From Pacificibacter marinus (GTDB lineage: Bacteria > Pseudomonadota > Alphaproteobacteria > Rhodobacterales > Rhodobacteraceae): a stretch of DNA of 64,000 nt. Positions 27,755 to 43,766 of this stretch are shown one piece after another. Under the pieces are notes generated by a model. It made no database searches and was not told the origin of the DNA. It saw nothing but the letters and a program-made list of their open reading frames with translations. The position numbers were made by a program, and so were the translations under genes. Where the stretch lies: positions 62,001 to 126,000 of the forward strand of contig NZ_JAHKPK010000022.1 of the NCBI RefSeq assembly GCF_018860665.1. Direction: 5' to 3'. Each line of letters opens with the position of its first letter. The stretch's first letter is position 1.

Positions 27755-27801
27755 TGGTGACCCCGGCAGGATTCGAACCTGCAACCTGCCCCTTAGGAGG
27801 G
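27755..27801 (-). repeat. attL: displaced 3' half of tRNA-Arg(CCT)
   Basis: This segment, read on the minus strand, is the 3' half of tRNA-Arg from the anticodon loop through the T arm to CCA. Positions 27783-27801 are identical (19 bp) to 43718-43736 in the intact gene. The T stem differs from the intact gene by four bases that compensate in pairs, so both versions fold. The 5' half is missing, so it is not a functional tRNA. It marks the left end of the integrated element. Confidence 0.9.
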
Positions 27802-27872
27802 ATGACTTCATATTCTGATTACTCCTTATTTTTCAATTAACTATAACCTGTACAGGACGGTAAGTGTACTGA

Positions 27873-28910
27873 TTATGTACGAAAATGAGCCCGTACAGAC
27901 GCCTCACTATCTTCATCGTGAGCATAAATCCTCAACGGCAACGCCACATCAGACCATCTCCCCGCCTTGGCCGCAGTAACAGGATCGACCCCTTGGCGAA
28001 CAACCAGTTCCGTGTAGTATCCGTGTCGACCAGCAGCATGCGCTGACAGGAAGGGGATCTTCGCTTGCTTGCAAATTGTTCTCCAACGGCAGGCATAGCC
28101 TGTGGAGGTCTTGTATCCGAACACACGCGCTTCGAAGAATTGTCCGGTCTGACGATTTCTTGGTCGCTTAGGCGTCAACGCTCGCAACTCTTCCATCATT
28201 TCCGGAGAAACCGTGACCTGACACTGATCGTGCCCTTTCTGCGCTTTAAGCTTAACTTTCGGCTCATGTGGATCCAAGTCGTCTGGGACAAGAGAAATCG
28301 CCTGATCAATGCGCGCCGCCGTCTCGAACATGAAGCGGAGCATAGCTGCATTGTAAGGATCAGCGTGGCGACAGAAAGCCTCAACCCATTCTCGGTCTGA
28401 AGGCTGCCGCTTTATCCGACCTACCTTTCCTCGGCGCCGATCTTGATCATGACGTTCCTTCGTTTTGTACCGTAGCACTTTAATCATTGGTGTGCCGTGC
28501 TTGTGGTGAGAGTAATTAATGACGGCGCGTGCTGGCGTGACAACCTCGCGCCACCATGTATCGGTGCCCGCATTAGGTTTGAGCTTCGGGCCAAGGCTTA
28601 GCAGCAAGGCACCGGTAATGGTCCCAAGGGGCATTTTCCCGATCTCCTCCGCAATTGGGATCAGCTGTCTCGCGGTTTTTTGCGTCACAGGGTATGACAA
28701 GATCGCATCATTAAAAGTTCGTGCGTGCGACTCGCCGAAAAGGTGGCGATTGATCTGCGCCTCGGTTTCCGCAGCTATCCAGTCCCACGCGCCGCTCTCT
28801 GTAGAAGCGCGTGTACTTCTCCGGTATGGGCCAGCGATTGGGCGGCTGTTGTACTCGATCCAGCCTTTCGCCCAGTAAATTTCCCCTCTTTTGTATGTGC
28901 TGAGTGGCAT
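27873..28910 (-). CDS. int: Tyrosine recombinase (island integrase)
   Basis: A 345-residue phage-type integrase. Catalytic residues are recognisable in order: Arg in FMFETAARIDQAISL, His-x-x-Arg in LSAHAAGRHGYYTEL, then a Gly-Arg-Trp segment (AKAGRWSDVALPLRIY) holding the Trp and the final Tyr. It lies 71 bp from the left attachment site and reads toward it, the usual layout. A GGAGGG ribosome site precedes the start, which lies inside the 3' part of the excisionase-like gene. It would insert and excise the element at tRNA-Arg. Confidence 0.85.
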   Translation of the reverse strand: MPLSTYKRGEIYWAKGWIEYNSRPIAGPYRRSTRASTESGAWDWIAAETEAQINRHLFGESHARTFNDAILSYPVTQKTARQLIPIAEEIGKMPLGTITGALLLSLGPKLKPNAGTDTWWREVVTPARAVINYSHHKHGTPMIKVLRYKTKERHDQDRRRGKVGRIKRQPSDREWVEAFCRHADPYNAAMLRFMFETAARIDQAISLVPDDLDPHEPKVKLKAQKGHDQCQVTVSPEMMEELRALTPKRPRNRQTGQFFEARVFGYKTSTGYACRWRTICKQAKIPFLSAHAAGRHGYYTELVVRQGVDPVTAAKAGRWSDVALPLRIYAHDEDSEASVRAHFRT

Positions 28911-29390: not shown

Positions 29391-29527
29391 CTGCGCCTCC
29401 AGACTGCTTTCCTTAGCTAAATATGGGCGTCCAAAGTTGGTTAAGTAAATGATTTTATTTATGTTTCCTCATATTTAGGGAAAGCGGCCAAATCTGGCAG
29501 GTTGTCGATCAGATGAAGGAGCACTCA

Positions 29528-30229: not shown

Positions 30230-30535
30230 CGCGGTCTTAAGTCTCCTGCTAAGTAGCACAAAGACCTGTCGCGATGTCCTAGATTTGATGGAGTAAATAT
30301 GTTGATTGTGATTGACTGACCTTCTCCCCAAGTTCCCTCCAGCTTTGCGCGGTGTCCTTGGGGCGCAAGTCAACGCGAACGGCCCTAAGCCGCCGTCCAC
30401 CTAGAGAGCTAGTTGCTGCAGAGCGGCTCGTCGAACCGGACGTTCGTGCATCGCGCAGCATTTTTCGGCTCAAAACGTTGACCCGTGGGGCCAAATCGTG
30501 GGTAGTCGCGTCGACCTTACTGATGGGTCAAGATC
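30230..30535. other. Non-coding stretch between the XRE and HipB-like genes
   Basis: About 300 bases with only Arg/Ser-rich shadow frames on both strands. In particular there is no HipA toxin sequence following the HipB-like gene on the minus strand. I see no clear terminator. Confidence 0.5.
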
Positions 30536-30760
30536 CTAGTAAAATTGACTTTTTCGCACCACGAGCTCGAGTTCGTTCGCCTCTAGCAAGGATAGTACTG
30601 TTTCTAACCGTACACCCTGATCACCATTTTCTACTTTTGAAACCGTTGCCTGCCGAAGGTCAGCGCGTTCCGCGATTTCAGCCTGAGTAGAGGCGGAAGC
30701 CTTTCTAGCTTCGGCGAGCAGAGCACCCAAGCGTTGCGGGCTAGAAATCAGGCTGGTCAT
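30536..30760 (-). CDS. HipB-like HTH regulator without a HipA partner
   Basis: A 74-residue XRE protein: LGALLAEARKASASTQAEIAERADLRQATVSKVENGDQGVRLETVLSLLEANELELVV. The match is to HipB/Y4mF-type antitoxins, including the C-terminal strand that normally dimerises. No toxin gene is adjacent on either side. It faces hsdR across a short intergenic region with a perfect inverted repeat, so it is more likely a controller of the restriction operon than a functional antitoxin; this is inference. Confidence 0.75.
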   Translation of the reverse strand: MTSLISSPQRLGALLAEARKASASTQAEIAERADLRQATVSKVENGDQGVRLETVLSLLEANELELVVRKSQFY

Positions 30761-30795
30761 CGCACGTCCATTGTAGAAAAGATTACACTAGCTAG

Positions 30796-30815
30796 TATAC
30801 GCTTTTGCGTATAAT
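30796..30815 (+). promoter_or_regulatory. Putative hsdR promoter with overlapping operator
   Basis: A perfect 7-bp inverted repeat TATACGC...GCGTATA with a four-base spacer (30796-30813) overlaps a consensus TATAAT at 30810-30815, placed about 50 bp before hsdR. A second 10-bp palindrome ACTAGCTAGT (30787-30796) abuts it. The position would let a bound repressor block hsdR transcription. The likely ligand is the adjacent HipB-like protein. Confidence 0.55.
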
Positions 30816-30863
30816 TGTACAGCATCAGAACCTTCGCTCTGTACAACATCGCAAAGGGAATTT

Positions 30864-33236
30864 TTGGAGTATTTGAAGCAAATGTCGCTGCCCCCTGGAG
30901 AGAAGAAGAATCTCAGTGAGTCCGATATCTGTGACCTCTATATTACTCCAGCACTGAAACGCGCTGGCTGGGATCAGTTGACCCAGATAAGGCGAGAAGT
31001 GACTTTGACGCCGGGGCCAATCATCGTCCGCGGGAACATGTCTTCCCGCAACAAGAAGAAAAAGAAATTTGCCGATTATGTCCTATCTTGGGAGCCGTCT
31101 CTTCCAGTGGCTGTATTGGAGGCCAAAGACAACAACCATTCTGTAGGACACGGGATGCAGCAGGCGCTTGGCTACGCCGAGATCATGCAGATTCCAACGG
31201 CTTTCAGTTCAAATGGCGATGGTTTCGAACAACACAACAAGCACCCAAGTGCCGGCGAAGAAATTGAAACATCTCTTTCTTTGACTGCGTTCCCAGACCC
31301 CCAAACCCTTTGGGCACGTTACAAATCATTCCGTGGCATTGAAGGTGGTGAGCAAACCTTGCTGATGGAGCCATACCATGATGACGGGTCAGGCAAAGAG
31401 CCGAGGTATTATCAGGCCGAAGCGATCAACCGCACCATTGAAGCTGTCGCGAAGGGCAAGAATCGAGTGCTATTGGTCATGGCGACCGGAACCGGCAAGA
31501 CCTACACGACCTTTCAGATCATTTGGCGGCTTTGGAAGGCTGGTGCTGCAAAGCGCATCTTGTTTTTGGCTGATCGTAACATTCTTGTTGATCAGACACT
31601 TGTGAATGACTTTAAGCCCTTTGGTTCTGTGATGACCAAAATTGGAAGTCGGAGGATTGATCCGTCTTATGAAATACACTTGGGTCTATACCAGTCACTT
31701 ACGGGCCGTGAGGAAGGTGACAAGACGTTCAAGACCGTTTCTCCAGACTTCTTTGATTTAATCGTCGTAGATGAGTGTCATCGCGGAAGTGCATCTGAAA
31801 ACTCGGAGTGGCGTGAAATCCTAGAGTATTTCGAGGGTGCCATACAGATTGGTTTGACGGCGACGCCAAAGGAAACCAAGGATGTCTCAAGCAGCACCTA
31901 TTTCGGCGAACCAGCCTACACCTATAGTCTAAAACAAGGGATCGAAGACGGGTTTCTAGCGCCTTACAAAGTAGTTAAAATCGATATCGATAAAGATGTC
32001 GAAGGTTGGACCCCGCCGCTTGGCGCCATCGATGATCTCGGTAACCCGCTTGAAGACCGACAGTACAACCAGAAAGACATGGATCGACTTCTGGTGCTGA
32101 ACCAACGCACCAAGCTGGTTGCAGCGCGGGTGATACAGCTCCTCAACGCGACTGACCCTTTCAGCAAGACCATCATCTTTTGCGAAGACATCGACCACGC
32201 TGAGCGGATGCGCAAGGCAATCGTAAACGCTGCCGGCCAGATCGCGATTGATAATCCGCAATATGTAAGGCGTATCACCGGCGATACTAAGGAGGATGGC
32301 AAAGCCGCTTTGGACAACTTCATCGACCCGGAAAGCAAGTTTCCCGTCATTGCTACAACATCCGAAATGCTTACCACCGGCGTAGATGCGAAGACCTGCA
32401 AGCTGATAGTCCTCGATAAAACGATCACATCCATGACCACCTTTAAGCAAATTATTGGGCGAGGAACTCGCGTCGATGAGGAGCATGGCAAGTGGTACTT
32501 CACCATCATGGATTTCAAAAAAGCAACAGAGCTCTTTAACGACCCGGATTTTGACGGGGAAGCGGTCGTAATCTACGAGCCAGGCGATAATGATCCACCC
32601 GAACCTCCTGATCCCCCAATTGATCCGGAAGACGATCATTTGGAACCGCCAGATAGTACTGGCATAACCAAGCTGGTCGTCAGCGGCGTCGAAGTGGAGA
32701 TCATTGCGGAACGAGTCAGCTTCATTGGTCCCGACGGTGCCTTGATCACGGAATCTTACAAGGAATTTGCGCGGAAACAGATTTTGACGGAGTTTTCGTC
32801 CTTGGACGACTTCATCCGCAAGTGGAACGACGCTGACAAGAAGGCCGCGATCATCCAAGAGCTGGAGGAGCATGGCATCTTGTTGGAGAACTTGGCCGAA
32901 GAGGTCGGTAAGGATTTCGGCGATTTCGATCTGCTCTGCCACATCGCATACGACCAGCCGCCCCTCACACGCGCGGAGCGTGCCAAAAACGTCAAGAAGC
33001 GCAACTACTTCACAAAATACGGCGACGAGGTCCGCAAGGTTCTGTGGGCGCTTCTGGACAAGTATGCAGACGAAGGGGTGAGCACAATCGAAGACGCCCG
33101 CGTCTTGCGTCTTGACCCCTTCGATGAGATTGGAACACCGGTCGAGATCATCCGCGATGTGTTCGGCGGCAAAGAACAATACGAACAAGCCGTTAGAGAG
33201 CTTGAGCAACAGATATACAGACAGGCGGACGGATAA
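30864..33236 (+). CDS. hsdR: Type I restriction enzyme R subunit (EcoEI-like)
   Basis: The motor and nuclease subunit. The N-terminal PD-(D/E)xK nuclease is visible as FADYVLSW...LPVAVLEAKDNN (Asp, then Glu-Ala-Lys). The helicase has Walker A VMATGTGKTYTTF near residue 205, DECH with HRGSASENSEW, TATPKE, and the RecA2 motif QIIGRGTRVD. The C-terminal domain matches the EcoEI R family, and 790 residues is normal for that shorter type. The start is TTG 30864 with AAAGGG before it; ATG 30882 is possible. First gene of a five-gene operon; hsdM begins on the next base. Confidence 0.93.
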   Translation: MEYLKQMSLPPGEKKNLSESDICDLYITPALKRAGWDQLTQIRREVTLTPGPIIVRGNMSSRNKKKKKFADYVLSWEPSLPVAVLEAKDNNHSVGHGMQQALGYAEIMQIPTAFSSNGDGFEQHNKHPSAGEEIETSLSLTAFPDPQTLWARYKSFRGIEGGEQTLLMEPYHDDGSGKEPRYYQAEAINRTIEAVAKGKNRVLLVMATGTGKTYTTFQIIWRLWKAGAAKRILFLADRNILVDQTLVNDFKPFGSVMTKIGSRRIDPSYEIHLGLYQSLTGREEGDKTFKTVSPDFFDLIVVDECHRGSASENSEWREILEYFEGAIQIGLTATPKETKDVSSSTYFGEPAYTYSLKQGIEDGFLAPYKVVKIDIDKDVEGWTPPLGAIDDLGNPLEDRQYNQKDMDRLLVLNQRTKLVAARVIQLLNATDPFSKTIIFCEDIDHAERMRKAIVNAAGQIAIDNPQYVRRITGDTKEDGKAALDNFIDPESKFPVIATTSEMLTTGVDAKTCKLIVLDKTITSMTTFKQIIGRGTRVDEEHGKWYFTIMDFKKATELFNDPDFDGEAVVIYEPGDNDPPEPPDPPIDPEDDHLEPPDSTGITKLVVSGVEVEIIAERVSFIGPDGALITESYKEFARKQILTEFSSLDDFIRKWNDADKKAAIIQELEEHGILLENLAEEVGKDFGDFDLLCHIAYDQPPLTRAERAKNVKKRNYFTKYGDEVRKVLWALLDKYADEGVSTIEDARVLRLDPFDEIGTPVEIIRDVFGGKEQYEQAVRELEQQIYRQADG

Positions 33237-34715
33237 ATGGGTGATCTTACCAGCATCATTAAGGCGATACAGGACATCATGCGCAAAGACGTGGGTGTCG
33301 ATGGTGATGCGCAGCGCATCGGCCAGATGGTGTGGATGTTCTTCCTAAAGATTCTCGATGACCGCGAACAGGAACTTGAACTCATCGATGACGACTTTGT
33401 GTCGGCTCTTCCCGACAATCTGCGCTGGCGCAATTGGGCGGGCGAACGCGAAGGCCTGACCGGCGAAGGCCTGTTTGACTTTGTGCAAGATACGCTTTTT
33501 CCAAAGCTGAAGGCTCCTGTGAAGACGCAAGGCCCGCAGCGAGAACAGGCGTTAATCATCCAGCGCGTCTTCGAGAACGCATACAACTACATGAAATCCG
33601 GCACGTTGCTGCGGCAGGTCATTAACAAGATCAACGAGGTCGATTTCAACAACCGCGAAGACTGGCACACTTTTGGCGGCATTTATGAGCAAATCCTGCG
33701 CGACCTGCAAAGTGCGGGCAATGCTGGCGAATTCTATACACCCCGCGCAGTGACCCGCTTCATCGTGAACCGCGTTGACCCTAAGTTGGATGAAACCGTC
33801 TTCGACCCTGCCTGCGGGACGGGCGGTTTTCTGACTTGCGCAATCGATCATAAAAAAGAGCATTACGCCAAGACCAGCAAGGACCGCCAGCAGCTCGCAA
33901 AGACCATCAAGGGGGTCGAGAAAAAGCCGCTGCCTTACATGCTCTGCATGACCAACATGATCCTGCATGGGATTGACAGCCCCTCGAACATCCGCCTCGA
34001 TAACACGTTGGCCAAACCCTACCGCGACTATGGCGACAAGGACCGCGTACACTGTATCATCACCAACCCGCCCTTTGGTGGGATCGAGGAAGACGGGATC
34101 GAGCAGAACTTCCCCGCAGGCCTGCGCACCCGCGAAACAGCTGATCTGTTCATCGCGGTCATCATCAAGCTGCTCAAGAAACACGGCCGCGCCGCTGTCG
34201 TCCTGCCTGATGGCTTTCTGTTTGGCGAAGGCACGAAGACACGGCTGAAAGAGTCACTTTTGACCGAGTGCAATCTGCACACCATCGTCCGCCTGCCCAA
34301 CGGCGTGTTCAACCCCTACACGGGCATCAAGACCAACATCTTGTTCTTCACCAAGGGTGAACCGACGACGGATGTCTGGTTCTACGAACACCCCTATCCA
34401 GAAGGTGTGAAAAACTACAACAAATCCAAGCCCATGCAGTTCGCGGAGTTCCAGCCCGAGATCGACTGGTGGGGTGATGAGGCCGATGGGTTCAAGGCCC
34501 GCAAGGAGACCAATCAGGCGTGGAAACGCAGCGTGGAATACTTCGAACAGCGTGGTTTCAATCTCGACGACAAGAACCCGTTTGAGGCTGCGAAGAAAAA
34601 CTTGGACCCTGACGATCTGTTGGAGGACTACCGGATCGCGCAGGACGACATTCAAAAGCTGCGTGATCAGTTGAAGTCCATCTTGTCGGATGCGCTAAAT
34701 GGGGGCCGCCCGTGA
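33237..34715 (+). CDS. hsdM: Type I restriction-modification M subunit
   Basis: The N6-adenine methyltransferase subunit. The N-terminal HsdM domain (about residues 5-130) is followed by the MTase: AGEFYTPRAVTRFIV, the SAM site VFDPACGTGGFLTCA and the catalytic NPPF in CIITNPPFGGIEEDGIEQ. It starts directly after the hsdR stop and overlaps hsdS by 4 bp (GTGA). Forms the M2S methylase with HsdS, and R2M2S with HsdR for restriction. Confidence 0.95.
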   Translation: MGDLTSIIKAIQDIMRKDVGVDGDAQRIGQMVWMFFLKILDDREQELELIDDDFVSALPDNLRWRNWAGEREGLTGEGLFDFVQDTLFPKLKAPVKTQGPQREQALIIQRVFENAYNYMKSGTLLRQVINKINEVDFNNREDWHTFGGIYEQILRDLQSAGNAGEFYTPRAVTRFIVNRVDPKLDETVFDPACGTGGFLTCAIDHKKEHYAKTSKDRQQLAKTIKGVEKKPLPYMLCMTNMILHGIDSPSNIRLDNTLAKPYRDYGDKDRVHCIITNPPFGGIEEDGIEQNFPAGLRTRETADLFIAVIIKLLKKHGRAAVVLPDGFLFGEGTKTRLKESLLTECNLHTIVRLPNGVFNPYTGIKTNILFFTKGEPTTDVWFYEHPYPEGVKNYNKSKPMQFAEFQPEIDWWGDEADGFKARKETNQAWKRSVEYFEQRGFNLDDKNPFEAAKKNLDPDDLLEDYRIAQDDIQKLRDQLKSILSDALNGGRP

Positions 34716-36466
34716 CAGATGTGAACCAGCTGATCACCGACCATCTGGATATCTGGACGGCGGCGACCGAAAAGAAATCCAGTGCAGGACGAGGCAATGG
34801 AGGCAGTGTCAGCCTTCATGGGATCAAGAAGCTGCGGGAATTAATCCTGGAGCTAGCAGTGCGGGGCAAGTTGGTTCCGCAAGATGATACCGATGTTCCT
34901 GCGGATGGATTGCTTGACCAACTGCATCTTCAACAGGCCCAGATGTTTGCCAAGGGCATCATCAAGAAACCCAAGCCGGTTGCCAAGATCGCCGCATCAG
35001 AACTTCCTTTTGAACTTCCGCGCGGCTGGACATGGTGCCGCGTATCTCAGCTTGGCCACGATTGGGGGCAGAAGGTTCCCGAAAGCCAGTTTACCTACAT
35101 CGACGTTGGTTCCATCAATAAAGAGCTGGGGCTGGTTTCTGAGCCAACGGTTCTTGAGGCGAGCAAAGCGCCATCACGGGCGCGCAAGTTGGTTCGGAAT
35201 GGGACCGTCGTCTATTCCACGGTTCGCCCATATTTGCTGAATATTGCGGTCATCACGGAGACCTTTGAACCTGAGCCGATTGCGAGCACCGCCTTTGCTA
35301 TCGTGCATCCATTCGACGGAGTCTCGGCCTCTTACCTATATCGCTATTTCCGCTCACCAACCTTCATCTCCTATGTTGAAGGGTGCCAAACTGGTATCGC
35401 GTATCCGGCCATTAACGATAAACAGTTCTTCTCTGGCTTGGTGCCGCTTCCACCTACCGAAGAACAACACCGCATCGTAGCCAAGGTGGATGAACTGATG
35501 GCGCTGTGTGATGCGTTGGAGCGGCAGGCCGAGGACAGCCTTAAGGCGCATCAAACCCTCGTCGACACCTGCCTCGCCACCCTCACCAACAGCCAAACCC
35601 CCGAAGACCTCACCCAAAACTGGATCCGCATCGAAGCCCACTTCGACACGCTGTTTACGACAGAGGAGAGCTTGGCGGAACTGGACAAAACAGTTCTTCA
35701 GCTTGGCATGATGGGTCTTCTAGTAAAGCAAGACCTATCAATAAGTAGTATAAGTTTACTTGAAACTGCTAGGAAAACGCGTGCGGCTCTTGTCGCCAGA
35801 AAAGAAGCAAAAGCCTTTAAGGCTAAGGCAACTAGTGAAGTTTTGGACTGGCCGTTTATTCTACCAAGTAGCTGGTCTTGGCTAAGACTCGGGGAAGCTG
35901 CCGTTCTAATCACAAAGGGCTCATCTCCAAAATGGCAAGGTGTTTCCTACACTGATGATCCAAGTGAGGTCATGTTTGTGACTAGTGAAAATGTAGGCCG
36001 TTTCGAAATGCTTCTCGACAACCCGAAATTTGTTGAGAGAAAGTTCAATACAGTTGAGCCTCGTTCTATTTTGAAGGCCGGTGATTACCTAATGAACATT
36101 GTCGGTGCGTCCATAGGTAGAACGGCTATTTACCCTGGTCCTGATGGTGCGAACATTAATCAAGCAGTTTGCTTGATACGAGTTCTTCCAGGGCTTTTTG
36201 ATTCTCGATTTTTGATAGCGTTCTTCAATAGCGAATTTTGTCGCGGCTATATGTTTGACAAACAAGTTGATAACGCACGCGCAAACTTGAGCATGGGAAA
36301 TATCTCACAGTTTCTGATCCCAGTTCCACCCATCGAAGAACAAGTGGCCATAGCTGAAAAGCTTGAACTTCTTTCTGGCTTAAGTTCCAATTTATCGAGA
36401 CGACTTCAAGCTCGCGCAGTGCTTTCAAAGTCACTGGCCGATACCCTTACCTCCAAAATTCATTGA
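34712..36466 (+). CDS. hsdS: Type I restriction-modification specificity subunit
   Basis: A 584-residue protein with two target recognition domains: TRD1 from about residue 100 (LPFELPRGWTWCRVSQLG) to 245 and TRD2 from about 380 (WPFILPSSWSWLRLGEAA) to 510, each followed by a conserved PPxEEQ spacer helix. It starts at GTG 34712, overlapping hsdM. From about 35,725 the base composition becomes clearly AT-richer and codon use shifts, exactly where TRD2 begins, which suggests a replaced TRD and a new half-site specificity. Confidence 0.92.
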   Translation: MTDVNQLITDHLDIWTAATEKKSSAGRGNGGSVSLHGIKKLRELILELAVRGKLVPQDDTDVPADGLLDQLHLQQAQMFAKGIIKKPKPVAKIAASELPFELPRGWTWCRVSQLGHDWGQKVPESQFTYIDVGSINKELGLVSEPTVLEASKAPSRARKLVRNGTVVYSTVRPYLLNIAVITETFEPEPIASTAFAIVHPFDGVSASYLYRYFRSPTFISYVEGCQTGIAYPAINDKQFFSGLVPLPPTEEQHRIVAKVDELMALCDALERQAEDSLKAHQTLVDTCLATLTNSQTPEDLTQNWIRIEAHFDTLFTTEESLAELDKTVLQLGMMGLLVKQDLSISSISLLETARKTRAALVARKEAKAFKAKATSEVLDWPFILPSSWSWLRLGEAAVLITKGSSPKWQGVSYTDDPSEVMFVTSENVGRFEMLLDNPKFVERKFNTVEPRSILKAGDYLMNIVGASIGRTAIYPGPDGANINQAVCLIRVLPGLFDSRFLIAFFNSEFCRGYMFDKQVDNARANLSMGNISQFLIPVPPIEEQVAIAEKLELLSGLSSNLSRRLQARAVLSKSLADTLTSKIH

Positions 36467-36557
36467 GAAAACATGCATTTAAGTTCTGTCTTATGCCACG
36501 AACGTACGAAACTTGTGAAAGTTCTCTCAACCTCTCGTCTTTGCGCGAGGTTTGCTG

Positions 36558-37319
36558 ATGCCCTGGCCTGATTTCACCGAACTGACTTTTGGCTTCGCTT
36601 TCCTACGCGAGCTGGAACAAAACTATGTGCTTGACGGCAAGTTCCCCAAAGCCCCCGACTTTATCAGCCAAGGCGCAGAGGCGACGAAGGGCTATGATGT
36701 CGAGGTCACCCTTGACGGATCAACACCCGTCTTCTTCCAGCTGAAGCGCTCCTATGTCCTGGAGCGCAAAAGCGCACGGGAGATAAAGGATGGGCTTTAC
36801 GCGGATCCTAAGGTCTATCGCATGAATCTGCACAAGAATGGCAAGTACCGCCAACACAAGGCGCTGCAGGGGCTCGAAGCGCTCGGCAACGCCGTCTTCT
36901 ACGTGACCAGCCAGATACACACCCCCAAGGAATTCTCAGACGCCTACAGCGCCGGAACGGTTGTGTCCCAGGCCTCGGCCATGTTCGCGCCCAATGAGAT
37001 CATTTTGCCGGACGACACGAAGGATCATCACGTCAGCTTCAAGCCGAATGATAGTTTTGGCTACGTGTATTCCAAAGAACCGCACCCGTTTGAACGAAAG
37101 TTTCAGAGCCTTGATAGCTGGCTTCCGGTCGTTGGGCAGCGCGCGCAGAGTGCGATTGAGAACCGGCAACTGCTTGAAAAGACTGTTGAGTTCTTGAAGA
37201 AGAAACGAAGGCCTCGCGATCCGGTTCTGCAGATGATCCGCGACCAACCGCTCGAAGCCCAAGCCGCGATCCTCGCCTATTTTATCCTCGACGCCCAACT
37301 GACCTTCGTGAAGACATAA
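36558..37319 (+). CDS. Nuclease-like protein with Q-x-K motif, unknown family
   Basis: A 253-residue protein with no family I can name. Residues 45-63 read GYDVEVTL...VFFQLKRS: an Asp (47) on one strand followed 14 residues later by Gln61-x-Lys63, the variant active-site pattern of Mrr-like and other PD-(D/E)xK nucleases; an N-terminal helix offers Glu18/Glu20. The C-terminal half is helical and basic (RRPRDPVLQMIRDQPLEAQAAIL). It starts at ATG 36558 with GAGG seven bases upstream, 91 bp after hsdS and 9 bp before the OLD-like gene. A defence nuclease acting with the next gene is inferred. Confidence 0.6.
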   Translation: MPWPDFTELTFGFAFLRELEQNYVLDGKFPKAPDFISQGAEATKGYDVEVTLDGSTPVFFQLKRSYVLERKSAREIKDGLYADPKVYRMNLHKNGKYRQHKALQGLEALGNAVFYVTSQIHTPKEFSDAYSAGTVVSQASAMFAPNEIILPDDTKDHHVSFKPNDSFGYVYSKEPHPFERKFQSLDSWLPVVGQRAQSAIENRQLLEKTVEFLKKKRRPRDPVLQMIRDQPLEAQAAILAYFILDAQLTFVKT

Positions 37320-37328
37320 GGGAAATCT

Positions 37329-39176
37329 ATGCGCCTAAAATCTGTCTGGATCAGCGAATATAAGAACCTTCGCGACTTCACGCTCACCTTTGACGGCGAC
37401 AGTTTCCTCGACATCTTCGTCGGCAAGAACGGCACGGGTAAGTCCAACTTCTTCGAGGCGCTGGTGGAAATCTTCAACTTCGTCTTCGCCTCGACGAAGC
37501 GGCGCAGCGAGATCAGTTTCGACTTCGATCTGTTCTACGAGATCGATGGCGATGATGTGCGCGTACGTCGTGAGGGTGGCCAGTTGCAGGTCAACGGAGC
37601 GAACCGTTCGAAAATCGCGGACGCGCTGACACCCGACAACGTGATCATCTACTATTCCGGTCACAGCGACAAAATCACGTCTACCGTAGATCAGTACGCT
37701 CGCGCCTACGCACGTCGGAACCGCAAGTGGACAGGCGAGGAAGCGCGGGAGTTCATCAGCATCGGGGCTGAGTACAAGGAGATGCTCCTTTCGATCTTGT
37801 TGATGCAGCCTGACGAATGCGCGGCCCGTCGCTATATCTGCCAGAAGCTGGGGATCGAAGTCACGTCTGAAACCGTCAGGCTTCGGCTGTCGCCGCCCAA
37901 GTTTAACCACAGCCATGTCGAAGTTGGCGATGTGGCTTCGTTCCTATGGGGGGCAGAGGGCCAATCACTCGTATTCGTTGAAAGGCTGCTCAACTGTGTC
38001 CGGGGCGAGTTCACACGAGACTCGATTTATGACCATGGGCAAGATCGGTATACTATCCGTATTAATATTGAGCTCTTCCGTGAAGAGTTTGCCGACGCGT
38101 CCTCGTCTGACCTTTTTCGCCAATTCGACAATCTGAAAACACTTGGCATGTTCGAGGGCTTGTCCATTCCGATCGGCTTGGGCGACGGCAGGCCGATCCT
38201 TGTCGGCGATTTTAGCGATGGTCAGTTTCAATCCACCTACATTTTCGCCATTACCGAATTTTTTAAAGACCGTAACTGCATCACGCTCCTCGATGAACCA
38301 GACTCTTTTCTGCATCCTGAATGGCAGTTTTGCTTTCTCAATCAGGTTGAAGACATCGCCGCGACCGAAGCCGCGCAGACCAATCACGTTCTACTCAGCA
38401 GTCACAGTGCTTCGACGATCGTCGAGGCCAATGAACCGCAGATACGCCTTTTCGAGATTGCGGATGGCAACGTCACGGCGGTGCAGCGTGATAAAGCGGC
38501 AGTAGTTCAGTCACTCTCGGCTGGGCTAATTACGTTTAGTGAGCGTGAGGCGCGCCTCAACATTTACCACAATCTCAAGAACACCAATGGGCCAGTACTC
38601 ATGGTTGAGGGAGTAACGGACGAAATCATCTTCGAAACGGCTTGGCGCAAGTTGTATGGAGCAGAGGTGAACCGGCCCTTTGAGATATTGAGCGCGTTTT
38701 CTTGCACAACACTTGGCCGTTTGATGCGAAGCGACGAATTCTACCAAGACAATCAGGGGCGCACAATTTTTGCGTTGTATGATTGGGATGAAGCTTACAA
38801 CGAATGGAACATGAACCACAGTCAAGTAGTTCAAAACAATGTTTCGCGTTGTTTGACCAGAAAGCGGAATGGAGTGGACGGCTACAACCTGATGTTGCCA
38901 GTTTCCGAGGAACATAGCTGTTACGGACAAGTTGTGAACGCAGCCACCGGGGAGCATTATAAAAGCAAGTCAAGTTTTCCAATGGAGCTGCTTTTTCGTG
39001 ACGCGCCTGGAGTAGGCGCACATTTTGAAATCGATCCGACGCGCCCCGGCAATTTTCAGCGCTTCAAGGGTGACAAGGCAACCTTTGCTAAGGAAATAGT
39101 TCCCGCTCTACCGCCTGCTGCGTTTGAGCCCGCCAGACCCGTTTTTGATTTTATCCTGCATACTATCGGCCAATAG
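37329..39176 (+). CDS. OLD-like ATPase with TOPRIM domain
   Basis: A 615-residue ABC-type ATPase: Walker A GKNGTGKSNFFEAL near residue 35, the signature-like region GDFSDGQFQSTY, Walker B ITLLDEPDSFLHPEW and an H-loop LLSSHSASTIVEAN. After about residue 420 a TOPRIM-like domain follows: VLMVEGVTDEIIFETAW (conserved Glu and Asp) and FALYDWDEAYNEW (Asp-x-Asp). OLD-family proteins are nucleases in phage defence (P2 Old, GajA of Gabija, PARIS-related). Here the partner gene is the Q-x-K protein rather than a UvrD helicase. Operon with hsdRMS. Confidence 0.75.
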   Translation: MRLKSVWISEYKNLRDFTLTFDGDSFLDIFVGKNGTGKSNFFEALVEIFNFVFASTKRRSEISFDFDLFYEIDGDDVRVRREGGQLQVNGANRSKIADALTPDNVIIYYSGHSDKITSTVDQYARAYARRNRKWTGEEAREFISIGAEYKEMLLSILLMQPDECAARRYICQKLGIEVTSETVRLRLSPPKFNHSHVEVGDVASFLWGAEGQSLVFVERLLNCVRGEFTRDSIYDHGQDRYTIRINIELFREEFADASSSDLFRQFDNLKTLGMFEGLSIPIGLGDGRPILVGDFSDGQFQSTYIFAITEFFKDRNCITLLDEPDSFLHPEWQFCFLNQVEDIAATEAAQTNHVLLSSHSASTIVEANEPQIRLFEIADGNVTAVQRDKAAVVQSLSAGLITFSEREARLNIYHNLKNTNGPVLMVEGVTDEIIFETAWRKLYGAEVNRPFEILSAFSCTTLGRLMRSDEFYQDNQGRTIFALYDWDEAYNEWNMNHSQVVQNNVSRCLTRKRNGVDGYNLMLPVSEEHSCYGQVVNAATGEHYKSKSSFPMELLFRDAPGVGAHFEIDPTRPGNFQRFKGDKATFAKEIVPALPPAAFEPARPVFDFILHTIGQ

Positions 39177-39769
39177 CATCCAAATCAGCGGCCAGGTAAA
39201 TATCCTACAACTTCCGCTTCGGTCCGTCTGTGTCAATGCTCGCGCACCTGCAGCGAACGTCTCCTAACCGCCCATTCTGTTGAAAAACTCTGTGCTGCAT
39301 CTGCAAATTTTGAAAAAGTGGGAAATCGTTCCCCGACGATCTCATTGCAGCCCTGTGGCGCCGTTGAGCTTTGGGTAAATCAGAATTTTGTTCTGCCCGA
39401 TTTAGGATCAACGCGCTGTATGGGAGTTTATCAACAGAATACGCCGATTCTGTTGATAAAATTGATGCTTACGCAGAAAGTGGGGCGTGAGAGACCATGC
39501 ACTCGCTTTACAGATCAGGCGTGGCAAATTTGCTTTGGCCTTGGCTAGATTTGGTGATTTCGGACGTTGTATTCGTTGTTTGCATTGCATTACCCACATC
39601 CGCCGGAAAACTCCCCAATCGCTCTCTCGATACTTGACGTCTCGCTCGGTCATGGGGATTTTTCCGGCTCGCGACGAGACCAAGGCGACCACCGCGGCTA
39701 CACACCCTTCCAGTAGGTATTTATCGACTGACTGTTCAAAGTGAAAATATCTCGCATATCAATGCAATA
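39177..39769. other. Non-coding stretch with an inverted-repeat element
   Basis: About 590 bases between the defence operon and the mobilization region. The only open frames are short and lack ribosome sites. It holds the MITE-like element and a 14-bp inverted repeat described separately. It may also contain the origin of transfer, which I could not locate with confidence. Confidence 0.5.
39274..39440. repeat. MITE-like element with 17-bp terminal inverted repeats
   Basis: The ends 39274-39290 and 39424-39440 are inverted repeats matching at 16 of 17 positions (ATTCTGTTGAxAAACTC). The 167-bp unit has no gene. A further copy of the same end, ATTCTGTTGATAAA, lies at 39447-39460 next to the right end and makes a perfect 14-bp palindromic arm with 39427-39440. 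This suggests a miniature element or the leftover ends of an insertion sequence. Confidence 0.5.
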
Positions 39770-40123
39770 TTAGATTTTACTATCATCTAGGTCACGTGCA
39801 AAAATCAGACAGGCTTGTCTCAGCACTGCGTTTTCTGCACGCAACCTATGATTCGCTAGCTCAAGCTCTGCCTTCCCCATCACGGCACCACTCTCGGGGG
39901 CCGTTTGAAGCGCTGCATCGATATTTTCCTCCTGACCACTGTCCCTGATCCATTCCAGCAGCGTCTTCGGCGCACATCCGACGTGCGTGGAGACCGCCTT
40001 TATAGCCGCCCAACGTGACAGGTGATCCTTACGAATATCGATTACCATCTGCACTGCCCGCTCCCGTGTTTGGACAGGGTAACGGCTTCGTGGCGGTCTT
40101 TTCTGCTCAGTTTCCTGCGACAT
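39770..40123 (-). CDS. IS3-family OrfA-like protein without OrfB
   Basis: A 117-residue protein with an N-terminal helix-turn-helix (YPVQTRERAVQMVIDIR...CAPKTLLEWI) and a C-terminal leucine-zipper-like coiled coil (ELANHRLRAENAVLRQACLIFARDLDD), the structure of IS3 OrfA. The OrfB catalytic subunit with the DDE motif is absent downstream, so it cannot transpose alone. It begins 17 bp after mobA in the same direction and may be an expressed last gene of the mobilization operon. Confidence 0.65.
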   Translation of the reverse strand: MSQETEQKRPPRSRYPVQTRERAVQMVIDIRKDHLSRWAAIKAVSTHVGCAPKTLLEWIRDSGQEENIDAALQTAPESGAVMGKAELELANHRLRAENAVLRQACLIFARDLDDSKI

Positions 40124-40140
40124 TTCCTATCATTTCCTTG

Positions 40141-41718
40141 TTAATGCTCCGGCCCATTCGTGCCATTTACGTTCACTTGAAGATGAAGCCTGTTTTCTTC
40201 GGCGTTTCGGGCTTGACCTGGCCGCGCGGCCTGCACCCTGCCTCGAAGGCGTCCTGCAAGGTCGACAACGAGGCGCTCAATTTGTTCTGCAAGTCGGCGA
40301 GCGCCTTCTCTTGCTCGAGCTGCCGCTGCATGCACGCGGAGACGGTCTTCTCCAATTCTTCTACGCAGGCGAGCAACTCGTTCTCGAGTGGTGTTAGGGT
40401 CATCGGGGATCACTCCATTTTCAAACAAGTTCGGTTCGTACCGGTGCCGATTGGGCACCTTGCGGGCACCAGCCCCAGCGGCATGACGATCACTTGCCCC
40501 AAGCCCCCTACGCCACGGGTAATCCGGCTGCCTGTCAGCTGCTCTGGGATCAGCTGCGTCGATGGTTCTGGTGGCCGTGTTGTCGCGGTTTTCGCGCCTA
40601 GAAATGCGGTGGCGGCTGTCGTTACTCCTGCTAAGGTCACTCCGAATAAGACTAGAACAACCATCCTTTTGGTCACGATCTTGCTGTGCCTTTGGCGCTG
40701 TTGTTCCAGCTCCCGATTTAAGGTTTCGATCTTCGTCTTGCGGAGTTCGACCTCTGCCTTCAACTGCTGGGTCGTGTCGCGAGAGAAGCTTTTCAGGCCT
40801 TCCAAATCGTTCGAGATTGTACGTGCGGCGCTTTGCGCAGTCTTCCGTAACGCGCCGTTCGAGCTCTCCAATTGGGATTGCAGCGAGTCGAGCTGAGCCT
40901 CTAGCATCTGATCCATGCTCTGTCGGATGCGGGGGTTGAGTTGTGTCTGCGGTCCAGTCGACATTGAAGTATGCTCCTTTCAAGCGCCATCTATTTTTAG
41001 GCAAGTCCGGGTCTGCGACGGTAACGTAAATCTCCCCGGCTCGCGGGATCTCGAAACCGATGCCTTTGAGTGCTCTGAGTAACGTCTTGCGGTCGTGGAT
41101 CACCCCGAACTCGACTTGGGTCTCGACCCATTCATTCACCTCTGCTCGCGTCTGAGCCCGCTCGGGCGCTTCAGTGACAGTTTTCACAGCGCGCGCCCGT
41201 GCGGGGTCCATCGGGTCCGCCCATCCGTGACGGCGATTATGCAGGTCCATGAACGCCATGTATGATTTCTCGTGGCCTGGTGGGGCGACGTTCAACGACT
41301 TTCCGGTAAGGAGATCCATACGAGGCATAAGGAAGTGCAGCTCGACACGCCCTGCATGAAGGTGACGGACCCAGAGCATCCGACACCGATCATGTTGCAG
41401 TCCGGGGCAGGCGAAGGCTTCGAAATCCTCCATGAGCTGGCGCTGCTTTGCTTCGGACGGGGCATCCTCGGCAGCAAAGCTCAGCACGCCGGACTTATAC
41501 TTCCAGCGATGTGGAACCGCGTCCACGAGATCGATCATGCGCTCCGGATGACCCTTCAGAACCTCAGGCATGATCGAACGGCGGGTGCGTTTGACCTTGT
41601 CCGCAGCATCCCGTTTGGGCTGACGGTGCTGGTCGTAGTCCACGACGACCTCGTCAATGAGGTAGTTCACGGCTGGCGCGGCTTTGCCCTGACCATGGTT
41701 GAAGAACTTGACCATCAT
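40141..41718 (-). CDS. mobA: MobA-type relaxase
   Basis: A 525-residue relaxase that would nick the origin of transfer and pilot the strand. The N-terminal 250 residues carry the nuclease: VKFFNHGQGKAAPAVNYLI, the histidine region WVRHLHAGRVELHFLMPRMDL, and AFMDLHNRRHGWADP. The C-terminal half is Arg/Asp-rich with low complexity and encodes two other proteins in another frame. The start overlaps the mobC stop by ATGA. Most similar in layout to ColE1-type MbeA. Confidence 0.82.
   Translation of the reverse strand: MMVKFFNHGQGKAAPAVNYLIDEVVVDYDQHRQPKRDAADKVKRTRRSIMPEVLKGHPERMIDLVDAVPHRWKYKSGVLSFAAEDAPSEAKQRQLMEDFEAFACPGLQHDRCRMLWVRHLHAGRVELHFLMPRMDLLTGKSLNVAPPGHEKSYMAFMDLHNRRHGWADPMDPARARAVKTVTEAPERAQTRAEVNEWVETQVEFGVIHDRKTLLRALKGIGFEIPRAGEIYVTVADPDLPKNRWRLKGAYFNVDWTADTTQPPHPTEHGSDARGSARLAAIPIGELERRVTEDCAKRRTYNLERFGRPEKLLSRHDPAVEGRGRTPQDEDRNLKSGAGTTAPKAQQDRDQKDGCSSLIRSDLSRSNDSRHRISRRENRDNTATRTIDAADPRAADRQPDYPWRRGLGASDRHAAGAGARKVPNRHRYEPNLFENGVIPDDPNTTRERVARLRRRIGEDRLRVHAAAARAREGARRLAEQIERLVVDLAGRLRGRVQAARPGQARNAEENRLHLQVNVNGTNGPEH
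40173..40403 (-). CDS. MbeD/MobD-like mobilization protein nested in mobA
   Basis: A 76-residue protein lying entirely inside mobA in another frame: MTLTPLENELLACVEELEKTVSACMQRQLEQEKALADLQNKL, a coiled coil as in MbeD/MobD of ColE1 relatives. A GGAG site nine bases upstream supports translation. Function in ColE1 plasmids is accessory to transfer and entry exclusion; here it is inferred by position. Confidence 0.6.
   Translation of the reverse strand: MTLTPLENELLACVEELEKTVSACMQRQLEQEKALADLQNKLSASLSTLQDAFEAGCRPRGQVKPETPKKTGFIFK
40410..40964 (-). CDS. MbeB/MobB-like coiled-coil membrane protein nested in mobA
   Basis: A 184-residue protein encoded within mobA in another frame. It has a long N-terminal coiled coil (about residues 15-90), one transmembrane segment (MVVLVLFGVTLAGVTTAATAFLG, about 100-122) and a short tail. 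This is the layout of MbeB/MobB, which links the relaxosome to the membrane. An AAAGGAG site nine bases before the start makes it a genuine gene rather than a shadow. Confidence 0.65.
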   Translation of the reverse strand: MSTGPQTQLNPRIRQSMDQMLEAQLDSLQSQLESSNGALRKTAQSAARTISNDLEGLKSFSRDTTQQLKAEVELRKTKIETLNRELEQQRQRHSKIVTKRMVVLVLFGVTLAGVTTAATAFLGAKTATTRPPEPSTQLIPEQLTGSRITRGVGGLGQVIVMPLGLVPARCPIGTGTNRTCLKME

Positions 41719-42158
41719 CGCCAGCTCCAATGCCTGTGCGCCAACTTACCCAGATTTCGATCAATGCCGACCAACAGGCTCAAAATTGCTAGTCGGTCGA
41801 GATAACCACTCTCAACCTCGGAATCCCGAAGCATGCGCGTGACTTCATCCATGTCAGCCTCAATGCGGGCCACAGCACGCATCAGTTCTGGCGGCGCGAT
41901 CGGTACGCTGGTTCGGTGGCCCGATGTCACCAGCCCCAGAGCTTCTCTAAGCAACTCCGCCAACGGGCGGCGGGCCTGTCGGGTGATGTCATCCAACGCT
42001 TCTTTCTCAAGCTGTGAAACTCGAAAGGTAATCGATTTGGAAAGATGATCTGTGTACTTGGCGACTGAAACTGCTCGGGGGTTCGAAGGGGGCGCAGCCC
42101 CCTCGCCTGTTCCCGCGTCGTAAGACGTGGGTGAACTTGTTTTCCGTCTCGTGACCAT
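41715..42158 (-). CDS. mobC: MobC-like relaxosome accessory protein
   Basis: A 147-residue protein with a Pro/Ser-rich start and a ribbon-helix-helix-like region (SKSITFRVSQLEKEALDDITRQARRPLAELLREALG) followed by helices. Such proteins open the origin of transfer for the relaxase. A strong AAGGAGGG site precedes the start. Its stop overlaps the mobA start; repC ends 14 bp upstream, so repC-mobC-mobA may be one transcript. Confidence 0.7.
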   Translation of the reverse strand: MVTRRKTSSPTSYDAGTGEGAAPPSNPRAVSVAKYTDHLSKSITFRVSQLEKEALDDITRQARRPLAELLREALGLVTSGHRTSVPIAPPELMRAVARIEADMDEVTRMLRDSEVESGYLDRLAILSLLVGIDRNLGKLAHRHWSWR

Positions 42159-42172
42159 AATTCTACCCTCCT

Positions 42173-43387
42173 TCAGCTTTTGGGGAAACCATGCTCAGTT
42201 TCTTTTAATAGCCGCCCTTGGCGGCTGCGGTGCGGTGGCTCGCCTGCCTTATGGGAGGCGATCTCACCACCACCCCGTGGCGCTAATCCAGATGCGTCGT
42301 TCGTGCCGTCATTGGTGCTCATTTGACGTCGAAGCCCTTGAAGTTCTCCAATCAATCCACGCAGTGCGGATCCGCGCTCGGCAGTGTCTCGCCCCAAGCC
42401 AAAGAACGCGCGGCGCATATCATCGACATGGTGTAAACTGCCATTTCTCTCGGCATTCCGGTCCACTAGCAGAAGGCAGATCGCCGTATTCTGCTGTCCG
42501 ATACAGTTGACCTGCTTCTGCCAAAGACCCGCCGGAATTTCCTTCACCTCAGCCCAAGCCTTCGCTGCCTCTGGGATGCTCCGCCAATCCGGCGGCCCGC
42601 CAGGGGGCGCATATTGCATCACCGCATCCTGAAGACCCTTGCTGGCAAGAACGTAGAACTGTGCCGGAGACAGCTGTGGTTCTGGCTGATCCTCGCTACT
42701 TCTTTTTAATTTTGTTTTTTTACATTCCCTGTGTGCGACAAACGTGTCGCTCCGGTCGGACATTTCCACTGCCACGGGTTCTTCATCAAATGTGTCGATC
42801 AGGGCCTCCAGAGCCTCAGCAACCTCCTTTAACCGGTCATAGCGCCAGATACGGGAGGGGCGACGAGACGGCAGGATTACTTCCGCCGCAGCAGCAGCCG
42901 AAGAGTCTCCAGCAATACCGACCCGTTCCAGTAGTTTGGGAATGTGTAGGCGCAGGCGTTTGGCTTCATCCTTCTCAAAGCAGGCCTTTCTTGCAGCTAA
43001 TTCGATCTCGCGCGCTCTTTCCACAAGCGGGGCGAGGTTGATGCCGTAGGCATACCGGATGAATTTTTCAGACCTGACACCGTAGCGCCGACAACGTGCG
43101 GCGCTCGATTTGATGATTAGTCCTAAGTCCACAAGAAGCGTCTCGGCTCTCGCTATCTGTCGAGGGTCCGTGTCAAGCTGCGAGGCGGTTTCCGCGACAG
43201 ATGGCCATATTGCGCAAATTCTATCAGCGGCATAGTCTTGATCCTGAGTCTTAGAGATCGCAAAGCGCAGATATTTGAGAGCTGCGTGGGTTAGGCCGAA
43301 ATGCTTCGCAGCTTTGACCAGATAGCTATAGAGCTCCCATCGTGTCATTCCGTCAGGTAGTCCGCGATGCTTTAACACATGTGTCAT
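42173..43387 (-). CDS. repC: RepC-like replication initiator
   Basis: A 404-residue homologue of the initiator of repABC plasmids. The N-terminal winged-helix domain has TRWELYSYLVKAAKHFGLTHAALKYLRF, ARAETLLVDLGLI and the family segment IRYAYGINLAPLVERAREIE; the C-terminal RP-C domain covers about 250-350. No repA or repB is nearby. The origin of repABC plasmids lies within repC, so the element may replicate after excision. The second ATG, 43387, is favoured because GGGAG is well spaced from it. Confidence 0.82.
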   Translation of the reverse strand: MTHVLKHRGLPDGMTRWELYSYLVKAAKHFGLTHAALKYLRFAISKTQDQDYAADRICAIWPSVAETASQLDTDPRQIARAETLLVDLGLIIKSSAARCRRYGVRSEKFIRYAYGINLAPLVERAREIELAARKACFEKDEAKRLRLHIPKLLERVGIAGDSSAAAAAEVILPSRRPSRIWRYDRLKEVAEALEALIDTFDEEPVAVEMSDRSDTFVAHRECKKTKLKRSSEDQPEPQLSPAQFYVLASKGLQDAVMQYAPPGGPPDWRSIPEAAKAWAEVKEIPAGLWQKQVNCIGQQNTAICLLLVDRNAERNGSLHHVDDMRRAFFGLGRDTAERGSALRGLIGELQGLRRQMSTNDGTNDASGLAPRGGGEIASHKAGEPPHRSRQGRLLKETEHGFPKS

Positions 43388-43427
43388 TGGCATCTCCCAA
43401 GACGGAAGCCATTGGGCAGAATTTTCG

Positions 43428-43457
43428 TTGTGACAGGAGCGTTCAATGCGCTATACT
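43428..43457 (+). promoter_or_regulatory. Promoter of the putative repC antisense RNA
   Basis: A GTGACA hexamer (43430-43435) is followed after 16 bp by TATACT (43452-43457), a good sigma70-type promoter on the strand opposite repC. The 10-bp sequence GCAGAATTTT occurs at 43416 and 43465, flanking it. Confidence 0.6.
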
Positions 43458-43463
43458 TATCTA

Positions 43464-43527
43464 AGCAGAATTTTGCGCCTGCTATGAAATGTGCCTCGGA
43501 TTCGGTTGCCGCCGAACCGAGGTTTTT
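43464..43527 (+). ncRNA. Putative countertranscribed RNA antisense to the repC leader
   Basis: Transcription from the promoter above would give an RNA of about 60 nt ending at the terminator hairpin at 43494-43527. repABC plasmids encode a ctRNA of about 55-60 nt at this exact position, between repB and repC on the opposite strand, which blocks repC expression and sets copy number. The match in place, orientation and size is strong, though no expression data are available. Confidence 0.6.
43494..43527 (+). terminator. Terminator of the repC antisense RNA
   Basis: A two-part stem (CCTCGG with CCGAGG, then TTCGG with CCGAA after one unpaired base) is followed by five T residues on the plus strand. 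In the antisense direction it is also a stable hairpin in the repC mRNA leader. Confidence 0.8.
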
Positions 43528-43689
43528 CTTTGGCAACACCCCAGATGGACTGAACCAATCTCGACGCCGGTGTACGGGTTTTGTACAGGCGAGTCGTGAT
43601 CCTGCGCCGAAAATCGACGTAAAATCCCGCACGAAGCTGCAAGAAGCACGCACACAACGCTCGCAAGTCATTGATATTAAGTTTAAATT

Positions 43690-43766
43690 TGGTGACCCCG
43701 ACTGGATTCGAACCAGTAACCTGCCCCTTAGGAGGGGGCTGCTCTATCCAGTTGAGCCACGGGACC
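43690..43766 (-). tRNA. tRNA-Arg (CCT anticodon), right end of the element
   Basis: The 77-nt minus-strand sequence folds as a complete tRNA with encoded CCA (43690-43692): acceptor GGTCCCG with CGGGGTC using two wobble pairs, a D stem GCTC/GAGC, anticodon stem GCCCC/GGGGC with loop CTCCTAA, and T stem ACTGG/CCAGT. The 3' half comes from the integrated element, the 5' half from the chromosome, so the gene is a hybrid. Its anticodon-loop region is the 19-bp crossover core. Confidence 0.97.

What the first reader, a model, noticed from the sequence alone, without database searches (positions are those of the whole stretch)
36558..39176. Nuclease-like plus OLD-like gene pair inside a type I restriction operon
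Downstream of hsdRMS, in the same direction with gaps of 91 and 9 bp, are a 253-residue protein with an Asp...Gln-x-Lys motif and a 615-residue ATPase with a TOPRIM-like C-terminus. OLD-family proteins work in phage defence with different partners (UvrD-like GajB in Gabija; others alone), but I know of no described system that pairs an OLD-like protein with a separate Q-x-K protein within a type I restriction operon. The two may form a second layer that acts when restriction fails or is blocked. This is the strongest candidate for an undescribed system here.
Basis: partly seen in the sequence, partly recalled or inferred. Interest (0 to 1): 0.72.

Follow-up and report, generated by a model that had tools for sequence, protein, structure and literature searches.

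The report
Backup nuclease genes behind a restriction operon
Marine bacteria of the Roseobacter group carry, directly behind a type I restriction system, a conserved pair of genes for a small DNA-cutter-like protein and an ATPase with a second nuclease-like domain, probably a fallback defence against phages; this is a new arrangement of a known kind, and the small gene looks like a later insertion.

Summary
In detail: EcoAI-like hsdR-hsdM-hsdS is followed on the same strand by a 253-residue protein (Glu8/Asp47/Gln61-x-Lys63) and a 615-residue OLD-type ABC ATPase with a TOPRIM-like C-terminus. The pair is conserved: nine distinct loci, the other eight Roseobacter-group or the same family, have both genes in this order behind hsdS, and 5 of 5 genomes with a full-length ATPase match (of 390 searched in the order) have the small gene beside it. 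The small protein has no Pfam, PADLOC, NCBIfam or PHROG match; its model weakly resembles PD-(D/E)XK nucleases. It is not tied to the ATPase: relatives stand alone on plasmids, in two rhizobial genomes and in two phage contigs, and ATPase alleles (42-97% identical to the window's) change beside a nearly constant small gene. The gap behind hsdS holds a relic of the ATPase gene's start, so the small gene was inserted into an older hsdS-ATPase junction. Distant ATPase relatives form Septu-type PtuA-PtuB pairs at the same place in other type I operons. All sits on a 16-kb island in tRNA-Arg. Best reading: an RM-linked fallback module (compare PrrC, PARIS, Septu) with an added, autonomous nuclease. 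The exact combination was not found in ten literature searches; the theme is known. No activity was tested.

The parts
30864..33236 (+). hsdR, EcoAI/FtnUII-type restriction subunit
   Evidence: NCBIfam NF046051, 1119.7 bits (cut-off 550); PADLOC REase_I
33237..34715 (+). hsdM, N6-adenine methyltransferase
   Evidence: Pfam N6_Mtase 1.3e-74, HsdM_N
34712..36466 (+). hsdS, specificity subunit; variable between loci (37-64% identical to the window's over the aligned part)
   Evidence: PADLOC Specificity_I 1.5e-163; identities
36473..36571 (+). relic of the ATPase gene's 5' end, now a 32-codon open frame that starts 6 nt behind the hsdS stop and ends inside the start of the small gene
   Evidence: ATG-anchored, 25 of 45 bases match the functional ATPase start; 0 of 1118 other ATGs in the window reach that; shuffle p 0.004; a frame of 23-34 codons is open here in 9 of 9 loci
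36558..37319 (+). small QxK protein (253 aa), PD-(D/E)XK-like, no known family; invariant E8, D47, Q61, K63
37329..39176 (+). OLD-type ABC ATPase (1-400) with TOPRIM-like C-terminus (about 420-615)
27783..27801 (.). attachment-site copy, 19-bp exact direct repeat of part of tRNA-Arg
   Evidence: the only exact direct repeat of 19 bases in the window
27873..28910 (-). tyrosine integrase of the island
   Evidence: Pfam Phage_integrase 1.7e-9
43690..43766 (-). tRNA-Arg (CCT), insertion site; holds the second 19-bp repeat at 43718-43736

Best explanation
A mobile type I restriction-modification operon carries a fallback module. The OLD-type ATPase-TOPRIM protein assembles through its ABC heads, senses infection (a phage anti-restriction protein, altered DNA ends or nucleotide levels; the trigger is not known) and then cleaves nucleic acid through its TOPRIM centre, stopping the phage or the cell when HsdRMS has been blocked or bypassed. 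The small QxK protein is a PD-(D/E)XK-type nuclease that works largely on its own and was added later, by insertion between hsdS and the ATPase. Its translation may be coupled to the operon through the relic reading frame that ends in its start. Shown here: order, conservation, motifs, the insertion relic, independent change of the ATPase, stand-alone occurrence of the small gene, the island. Inferred: nuclease activities, trigger, cooperation with HsdRMS, coupling.
For: Nine distinct loci with small gene plus ATPase directly behind hsdS; 5 of 5 order-level genomes with a full-length ATPase match have the small gene next to it. ATPase head: PtuA/AriA/GajA/OLD relatives by profile and fold; TOPRIM residues invariant in 8 of 8. 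Distant relatives of the ATPase lie directly behind hsdS, with hsdM nearby, in 6 of 6 plasmid records found by two searches (regions) and in L022 (ATPase in two frames), L023, L044 and L058; 8 of 8 neighbouring partner genes tested are Septu PtuB (PADLOC best E 1e-106 to 1e-60). Small protein: invariant E-D-QxK; resemblance to I-Ssp6803I, a SPARDA chain, PvuII, SwaI, HincII. ATPase alleles change independently: L027 vs L031 98% (dS 0.14) while their small proteins are 76% (dS 1.76); window vs L027 small 94% but ATPase 52%. Relic of the ATPase start. RM guardians in type I operons (PrrC) and PARIS are in print (PMC12707154, passages), as are OLD-ABC plus nuclease pairs as backup effectors beside BREX (PMC12839542, passages).
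Confidence: 0.5

Rival explanations
1. Obligate two-component machine: the small protein and the ATPase form one complex, as in Gabija or Septu, in which the ATPase senses and the small protein is the main DNA-cutting effector or its substrate-recognition subunit.
For: Adjacency with a 1-12 bp gap in 9 of 9 loci; no full-length ATPase without the small gene among 390 order-level genomes; distant ATPase relatives have a PtuB gene as neighbour (8 of 8 tested).
Against: Small protein without this ATPase on plasmids, in two rhizobial genomes and two phage contigs. Small protein 91-94% constant beside ATPases of 42-52% identity, and a 98% identical ATPase beside small proteins 76% identical. The ATPase already has a nuclease-like domain, and the small gene came later.
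Confidence: 0.25
2. The small protein is an extra subunit or substitute nuclease of the type I enzyme (for example for end processing after HsdR translocation), and the ATPase is a separate defence gene.
For: Same operon, right behind hsdS; a restriction-endonuclease-like motif.
Against: HsdR has its own N-terminal HSDR_N region (PF04313 E=0.00015, 22.2 bits, just under the 25.1-bit cut-off). Relatives of the small gene occur without hsd genes in the fetched flanks of four contigs, and none is annotated in the five fetched plasmid regions. 7 of 9 close hsdM relatives lack it.
Confidence: 0.1
3. The pair is a toxin with its control element (toxin-antitoxin-like), one protein keeping the other silent, with no direct tie to phage DNA.
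For: Pfam AAA_21 is described as putative AbiEii toxin; in PARIS, sensing by AriA leads to release of AriB (PMC12707154, passages).
Against: The small protein has nuclease-type invariant residues and stands alone elsewhere, which does not fit an antitoxin; different ATPases occur beside it.
Confidence: 0.08
4. Neutral passengers: the two genes travel with the island and contribute little.
For: Mobile island; a decayed copy of the locus in G453.
Against: dN/dS about 0.05-0.13 for the small gene and about 0.07-0.09 for the five close ATPase alleles; active residues invariant.
Confidence: 0.07

Closest known systems
PARIS (AriA + AriB, including fused AriAB; OLD class 4)
   Different: No DUF4435 match up to E=1 (that AriB is DUF4435 is recalled); best PADLOC match is PtuA; sits behind hsdS; has an extra QxK protein
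Type I-embedded guardians: PrrC in EcoprrI (type IC); RloA/RloB in Campylobacter type I loci (recalled; one listing seen)
   Same: An accessory nuclease gene inside a type I RM operon; proposed fallback when restriction is blocked
   Different: PrrC is a tRNA anticodon nuclease of another family; here a TOPRIM-like domain and a second, separate nuclease-like protein
Septu pairs (PtuA + PtuB) built into type I operons (L008, L022, L023, L044, L045, L046, L047, L058 here)
   Same: ATPase head (PtuA1 1.6e-50) directly behind hsdS
   Different: There the partner is PtuB (8 of 8 tested) and the ATPase, where intact, is about 530-560 aa; here the ATPase is 615 aa with a TOPRIM-like end, and a QxK gene lies before it
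Gabija (GajA + GajB) and class 1-3 OLD proteins
   Same: One polypeptide with ABC head and TOPRIM-like domain; fold matches to GajA, TsOLD and retron-Eco8
   Different: No UvrD-like helicase or stand-alone setting; neighbour is a QxK protein
OLD-ABC plus alternative nucleases beside BREX (PMC12839542, passages)
   Same: An OLD ATPase with PD-(D/E)XK, HNH or TOPRIM nucleases read as backup effectors of an RM-like system
   Different: There the PD-(D/E)XK protein takes the place of TOPRIM and the host system is BREX; here both are present and the host system is type I RM

Membership tests
OLD-type ABC ATPase-TOPRIM | ABC head with Walker A/B, signature and His switch of the OLD/PtuA/AriA kind | tested here: met
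OLD-type ABC ATPase-TOPRIM | C-terminal TOPRIM with Glu and DxD | tested here: inconclusive
   E427, D485, D487 invariant; order strand-helix-strand-helix-strand in the model fits; PF20469 E=0.097, best member 0.057; profile-profile E=0.021 in register, 20 shuffles 0.16-0.77
PARIS | AriB (DUF4435) TOPRIM subunit or fusion | tested here: not met
   no DUF4435 match at E up to 1; the fused AriAB model is matched, best over residues 274-443 only
Gabija | GajB UvrD-like helicase next to GajA | tested here: not met
   the adjacent gene upstream has no family match; no same-strand ORF of 90 aa or more starts within 0.8 kb downstream
Septu | PtuB next to PtuA | tested here: not met
   the small protein has no PADLOC or Pfam match, while the same search finds PtuB in 8 of 8 related operons; no same-strand ORF of 90 aa or more starts within 0.8 kb behind the ATPase
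PrrC | anticodon nuclease domain fused to the ABC ATPase | tested here: not met
   no such family among the Pfam matches at E up to 1
PD-(D/E)XK nuclease superfamily (small protein) | conserved E ... D ... (D/E/Q)-x-K active-site set | tested here: met
   E8, D47, Q61, K63 in 12 of 12; the definition of the set is recalled
PD-(D/E)XK nuclease superfamily (small protein) | core fold | tested here: inconclusive
PD-(D/E)XK nuclease superfamily (small protein) | metal-dependent nuclease activity | not testable with these tools
   needs purified protein
Type I RM (EcoAI-like, IB) | HsdR, HsdM, HsdS in one operon | tested here: met

The most novel reading that the evidence does not exclude
A five-gene, multi-layer defence operon in which HsdS (what is modified) and an OLD-TOPRIM ATPase (what is sensed) are both exchangeable cassettes around a constant QxK nuclease that also travels as phage cargo; HsdRMS, the ATPase and the QxK nuclease form successive barriers, and translation of the nuclease is coupled to the operon by the relic of the ATPase gene it displaced.
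Probability: 0.3. Interest if true: 0.65.

Novelty: new variant of a known kind. Interest (0 to 1): 0.45.

Why it matters
It adds a new sequence family of putative nucleases, found both in phage contigs and in a restriction operon. It also gives a clear case of how type I operons collect fallback defences: a place behind hsdS that holds different accessory genes in related operons, an insertion with its scar, and ATPase alleles that change as hsdS does. Because nearly the same small gene sits beside three ATPase types, these loci are natural test material for what each ATPase senses.

Tried and rejected
Hairpin over the ribosome-binding site of the small gene: looked plausible by eye, but 4 of 4 folded sequences (of 9 loci) were no more stable than shuffles (z -0.2 to -1.0); dropped. 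Conserved leader peptide: pN/pS 0.82 over 7 loci, so the frame is kept but not the peptide. Own promoter or terminator between hsdS and the small gene: none on the + strand there; counts in the region were not clearly above chance (promoters 6 found, 6.7 expected; terminators 15 found, 10.3 expected, sd 3.3). Solved-structure search by sequence for the small protein: only chance hits such as gasdermin and antibody chains. Pfam for 12 members one by one: two single chance matches, E 0.13 and 0.16. Comparison with Cap4 nuclease (PF14130): no member in 115 genomes or the controls, so no comparison was made. Viral-contig scans: none confirmed with the ATPase or with the L002/L033 type of small protein. 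Phage records: no small-protein match, one ATPase-head match. Viral fold library: nothing at E up to 0.001. First TOPRIM profile test: one of its nine OLD proteins (L063) was taken from the wrong strand by my script; repeated with 8 of 9 (L067 dropped because no motif was found in it). The frame-shifted Phyllobacterium copy (L003) was left out of the alignments and H4 was not fetched. I-Ssp6803I active-site residues could not be checked: the paper is not held.

Full report
What is there. The window is part of a genome (G000:C1:62001-126000) whose closest named loci are Roseobacter-group bacteria, so most likely of that group. hsdR, hsdM and hsdS (30864-36466) form a tight operon of the EcoAI type.

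Conservation of the pair. A genome scan with the small protein gave 9 loci. Seven, from bacteria that I place in the Roseobacter group by name, have small gene plus ATPase right behind hsdS. hsdR-M-S is complete in 7 of the 9; L025 starts in hsdS and L031 in hsdM at a contig edge. From the ATPase side, 5 of 390 order-level genomes have a full-length match and all 5 have the small gene next door; two more (G834, G568) match over the head only. In 398 phylum-level genomes the only full-length matches at E up to 1e-20 are G000 and G583. The small protein was found in 1 of 385 class-level genomes, the window's own, so the system is rare.

Not a strict pair. Relatives of the small gene lie in 6 plasmid records (five fetched), two rhizobial genomes (L032, L033) and two phage contigs, where it sits among or beside genes that look like tail genes by eye (L024; L041). 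None of these four contigs has a match to the ATPase or the hsd genes in the fetched flanks, and none of the 6 plasmid records is among the 5 that match the ATPase at E up to 1e-5. Conversely, of 198 family genomes 9 have a close hsdM; 2 have the pair, and 7 lack it in the fetched stretches, 6 of them with other genes behind hsdS and one (G432) broken.

Change of ATPase alleles. Against the window, hsdR and hsdM are 91-99% identical in five loci; in L027 they are 77% and 74%, and hsdM of L031 is 77%; hsdS is 37-64%; the small protein is 91-97% (76% in L031); the ATPase is 93-97% in five, 52% in L027 and L031, and 42% in L030 (identities over aligned residues). L027 and L031 share an ATPase that is 98% identical (dS 0.14) beside small proteins 76% identical (dS 1.76). 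Between the window and L027 the first 47 ATPase codons are near-identical (dS 0.13), then identity falls: probably a recombination joint inside the ATPase gene. So the small protein does not co-vary with its ATPase.

A relic shows the order of events. Behind the hsdS stop (6 bases behind it in 8 of 9 loci; in L031 the called hsdS frame runs 10 bases into it) there is a decayed copy of the ATPase start. In distant relatives the ATPase itself begins there, overlapping hsdS in L007, L008, L044, L046 and L048 and 15-22 bp behind it in L045 and L047. Anchored at its ATG, 25 of 45 bases match the window's own ATPase start; none of 1118 other ATGs in the window does as well, and the same holds in 7 of 9 loci (34 of 45 in L031). 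In L026 three and in L030 four of 1118 ATGs reach the observed value; L030's own ATPase is diverged, and its relic matches the window ATPase at 26 of 45. Shuffles agree in 8 of 9 (p 0.001-0.012; L030 p 0.93 against its own ATPase). The loci are related, so this counts as one event. The relic is now an open frame of 23-34 codons in 9 of 9 loci that ends inside the small gene's start. Its peptide is not conserved (pN/pS 0.82 over 7 loci), but the 27-base shortening in L026 keeps the frame. Inference: a cassette with the small gene entered an hsdS-ATPase junction, and the leftover start may couple translation.

Related operons. In 6 of 6 plasmid records with distant ATPase relatives the ATPase lies directly behind hsdS with an hsdM-type gene nearby, and the same in L022, L023, L044 and L058 (in L022 the ATPase is in two frames). 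Eight of these ten neighbours were tested and all eight are Septu PtuB (PADLOC; in Pfam only L023, L044 and L045 show weak HNH matches); L007 (unannotated gene) and L048 were not tested. So a PtuA-type ATPase behind hsdS is an old and widespread arrangement; the window's lineage has a TOPRIM-like end and the QxK gene instead of PtuB.

Island. A 19-bp exact repeat, the only direct one of that length in the window, occurs at 27783-27801 and within tRNA-Arg (43718-43736), with an integrase just inside and a RepC-like gene and a weak relaxase match (below cut-off) at the other end: a 16-kb integrated element.

Comparison with print. PMC12839542 (passages) describes OLD-ABC ATPases with TOPRIM, HNH, PD-(D/E)XK or PIN nucleases as backup effectors beside BREX and cites earlier work on ABC-ATPase RM-like systems (not seen here). 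PMC12707154 (passages) calls PrrC and PARIS RM guardians and places prrC inside a type IC locus. PMC10568477 (passages) gives OLD classes 1-4. Ten searches brought up no paper that, by its listing, describes this five-gene arrangement; most subscription papers and all preprints are not covered.

Verdict. A real, conserved, rare arrangement: a restriction-linked fallback module with an OLD-TOPRIM-like ATPase and an added QxK nuclease-like protein. New variant of a known kind. The insertion scar and the change of ATPase alleles beside a constant small gene are the most informative new observations.

Noticed in passing
27783-43736: 16-kb element in tRNA-Arg with integrase, HTH gene, the RM operon with its accessory genes, a possible RHH gene (weak match), a RepC-like gene and a relaxase match below cut-off: an integrated plasmid-like or mobilisable element.
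   Followed up: partly
L024 8001-8753; L041 5980-6879: Lone relatives of the small protein in phage contigs, among or beside genes that look like tail genes by eye, on the opposite strand, like accessory (moron) genes.
   Followed up: partly
L008, L022, L023, L044, L045, L046, L047, L058: Type I operons with a PtuA-like ATPase behind hsdS followed by PtuB (8 of 8 tested): Septu pairs built into type I systems in Alpha- and Gammaproteobacteria.
   Followed up: partly
L051 4583-5860; L052 2378-3553: Close hsdRMS relatives carry a different gene (about 390-425 aa, not searched) behind hsdS, as if this place were a slot for changing accessory genes.
   Followed up: no
L025, L026, L028, L042: Behind the operon these four loci share a 344-aa integrase-like gene, three of them (L025, L026, L042) also a 141-aa repressor-like gene; before it L026, L028 and L042 share a small toxin-antitoxin-like gene pair (all by eye): another mobile element with the same operon.
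   Followed up: no
G000:C44:81695-81889 (L060): The same genome has a further OLD-like TOPRIM protein elsewhere.
   Followed up: no
L021 (G453): A decayed copy of the operon: partial hsdR and hsdM frames and a fragment of the ATPase C-terminus.
   Followed up: no
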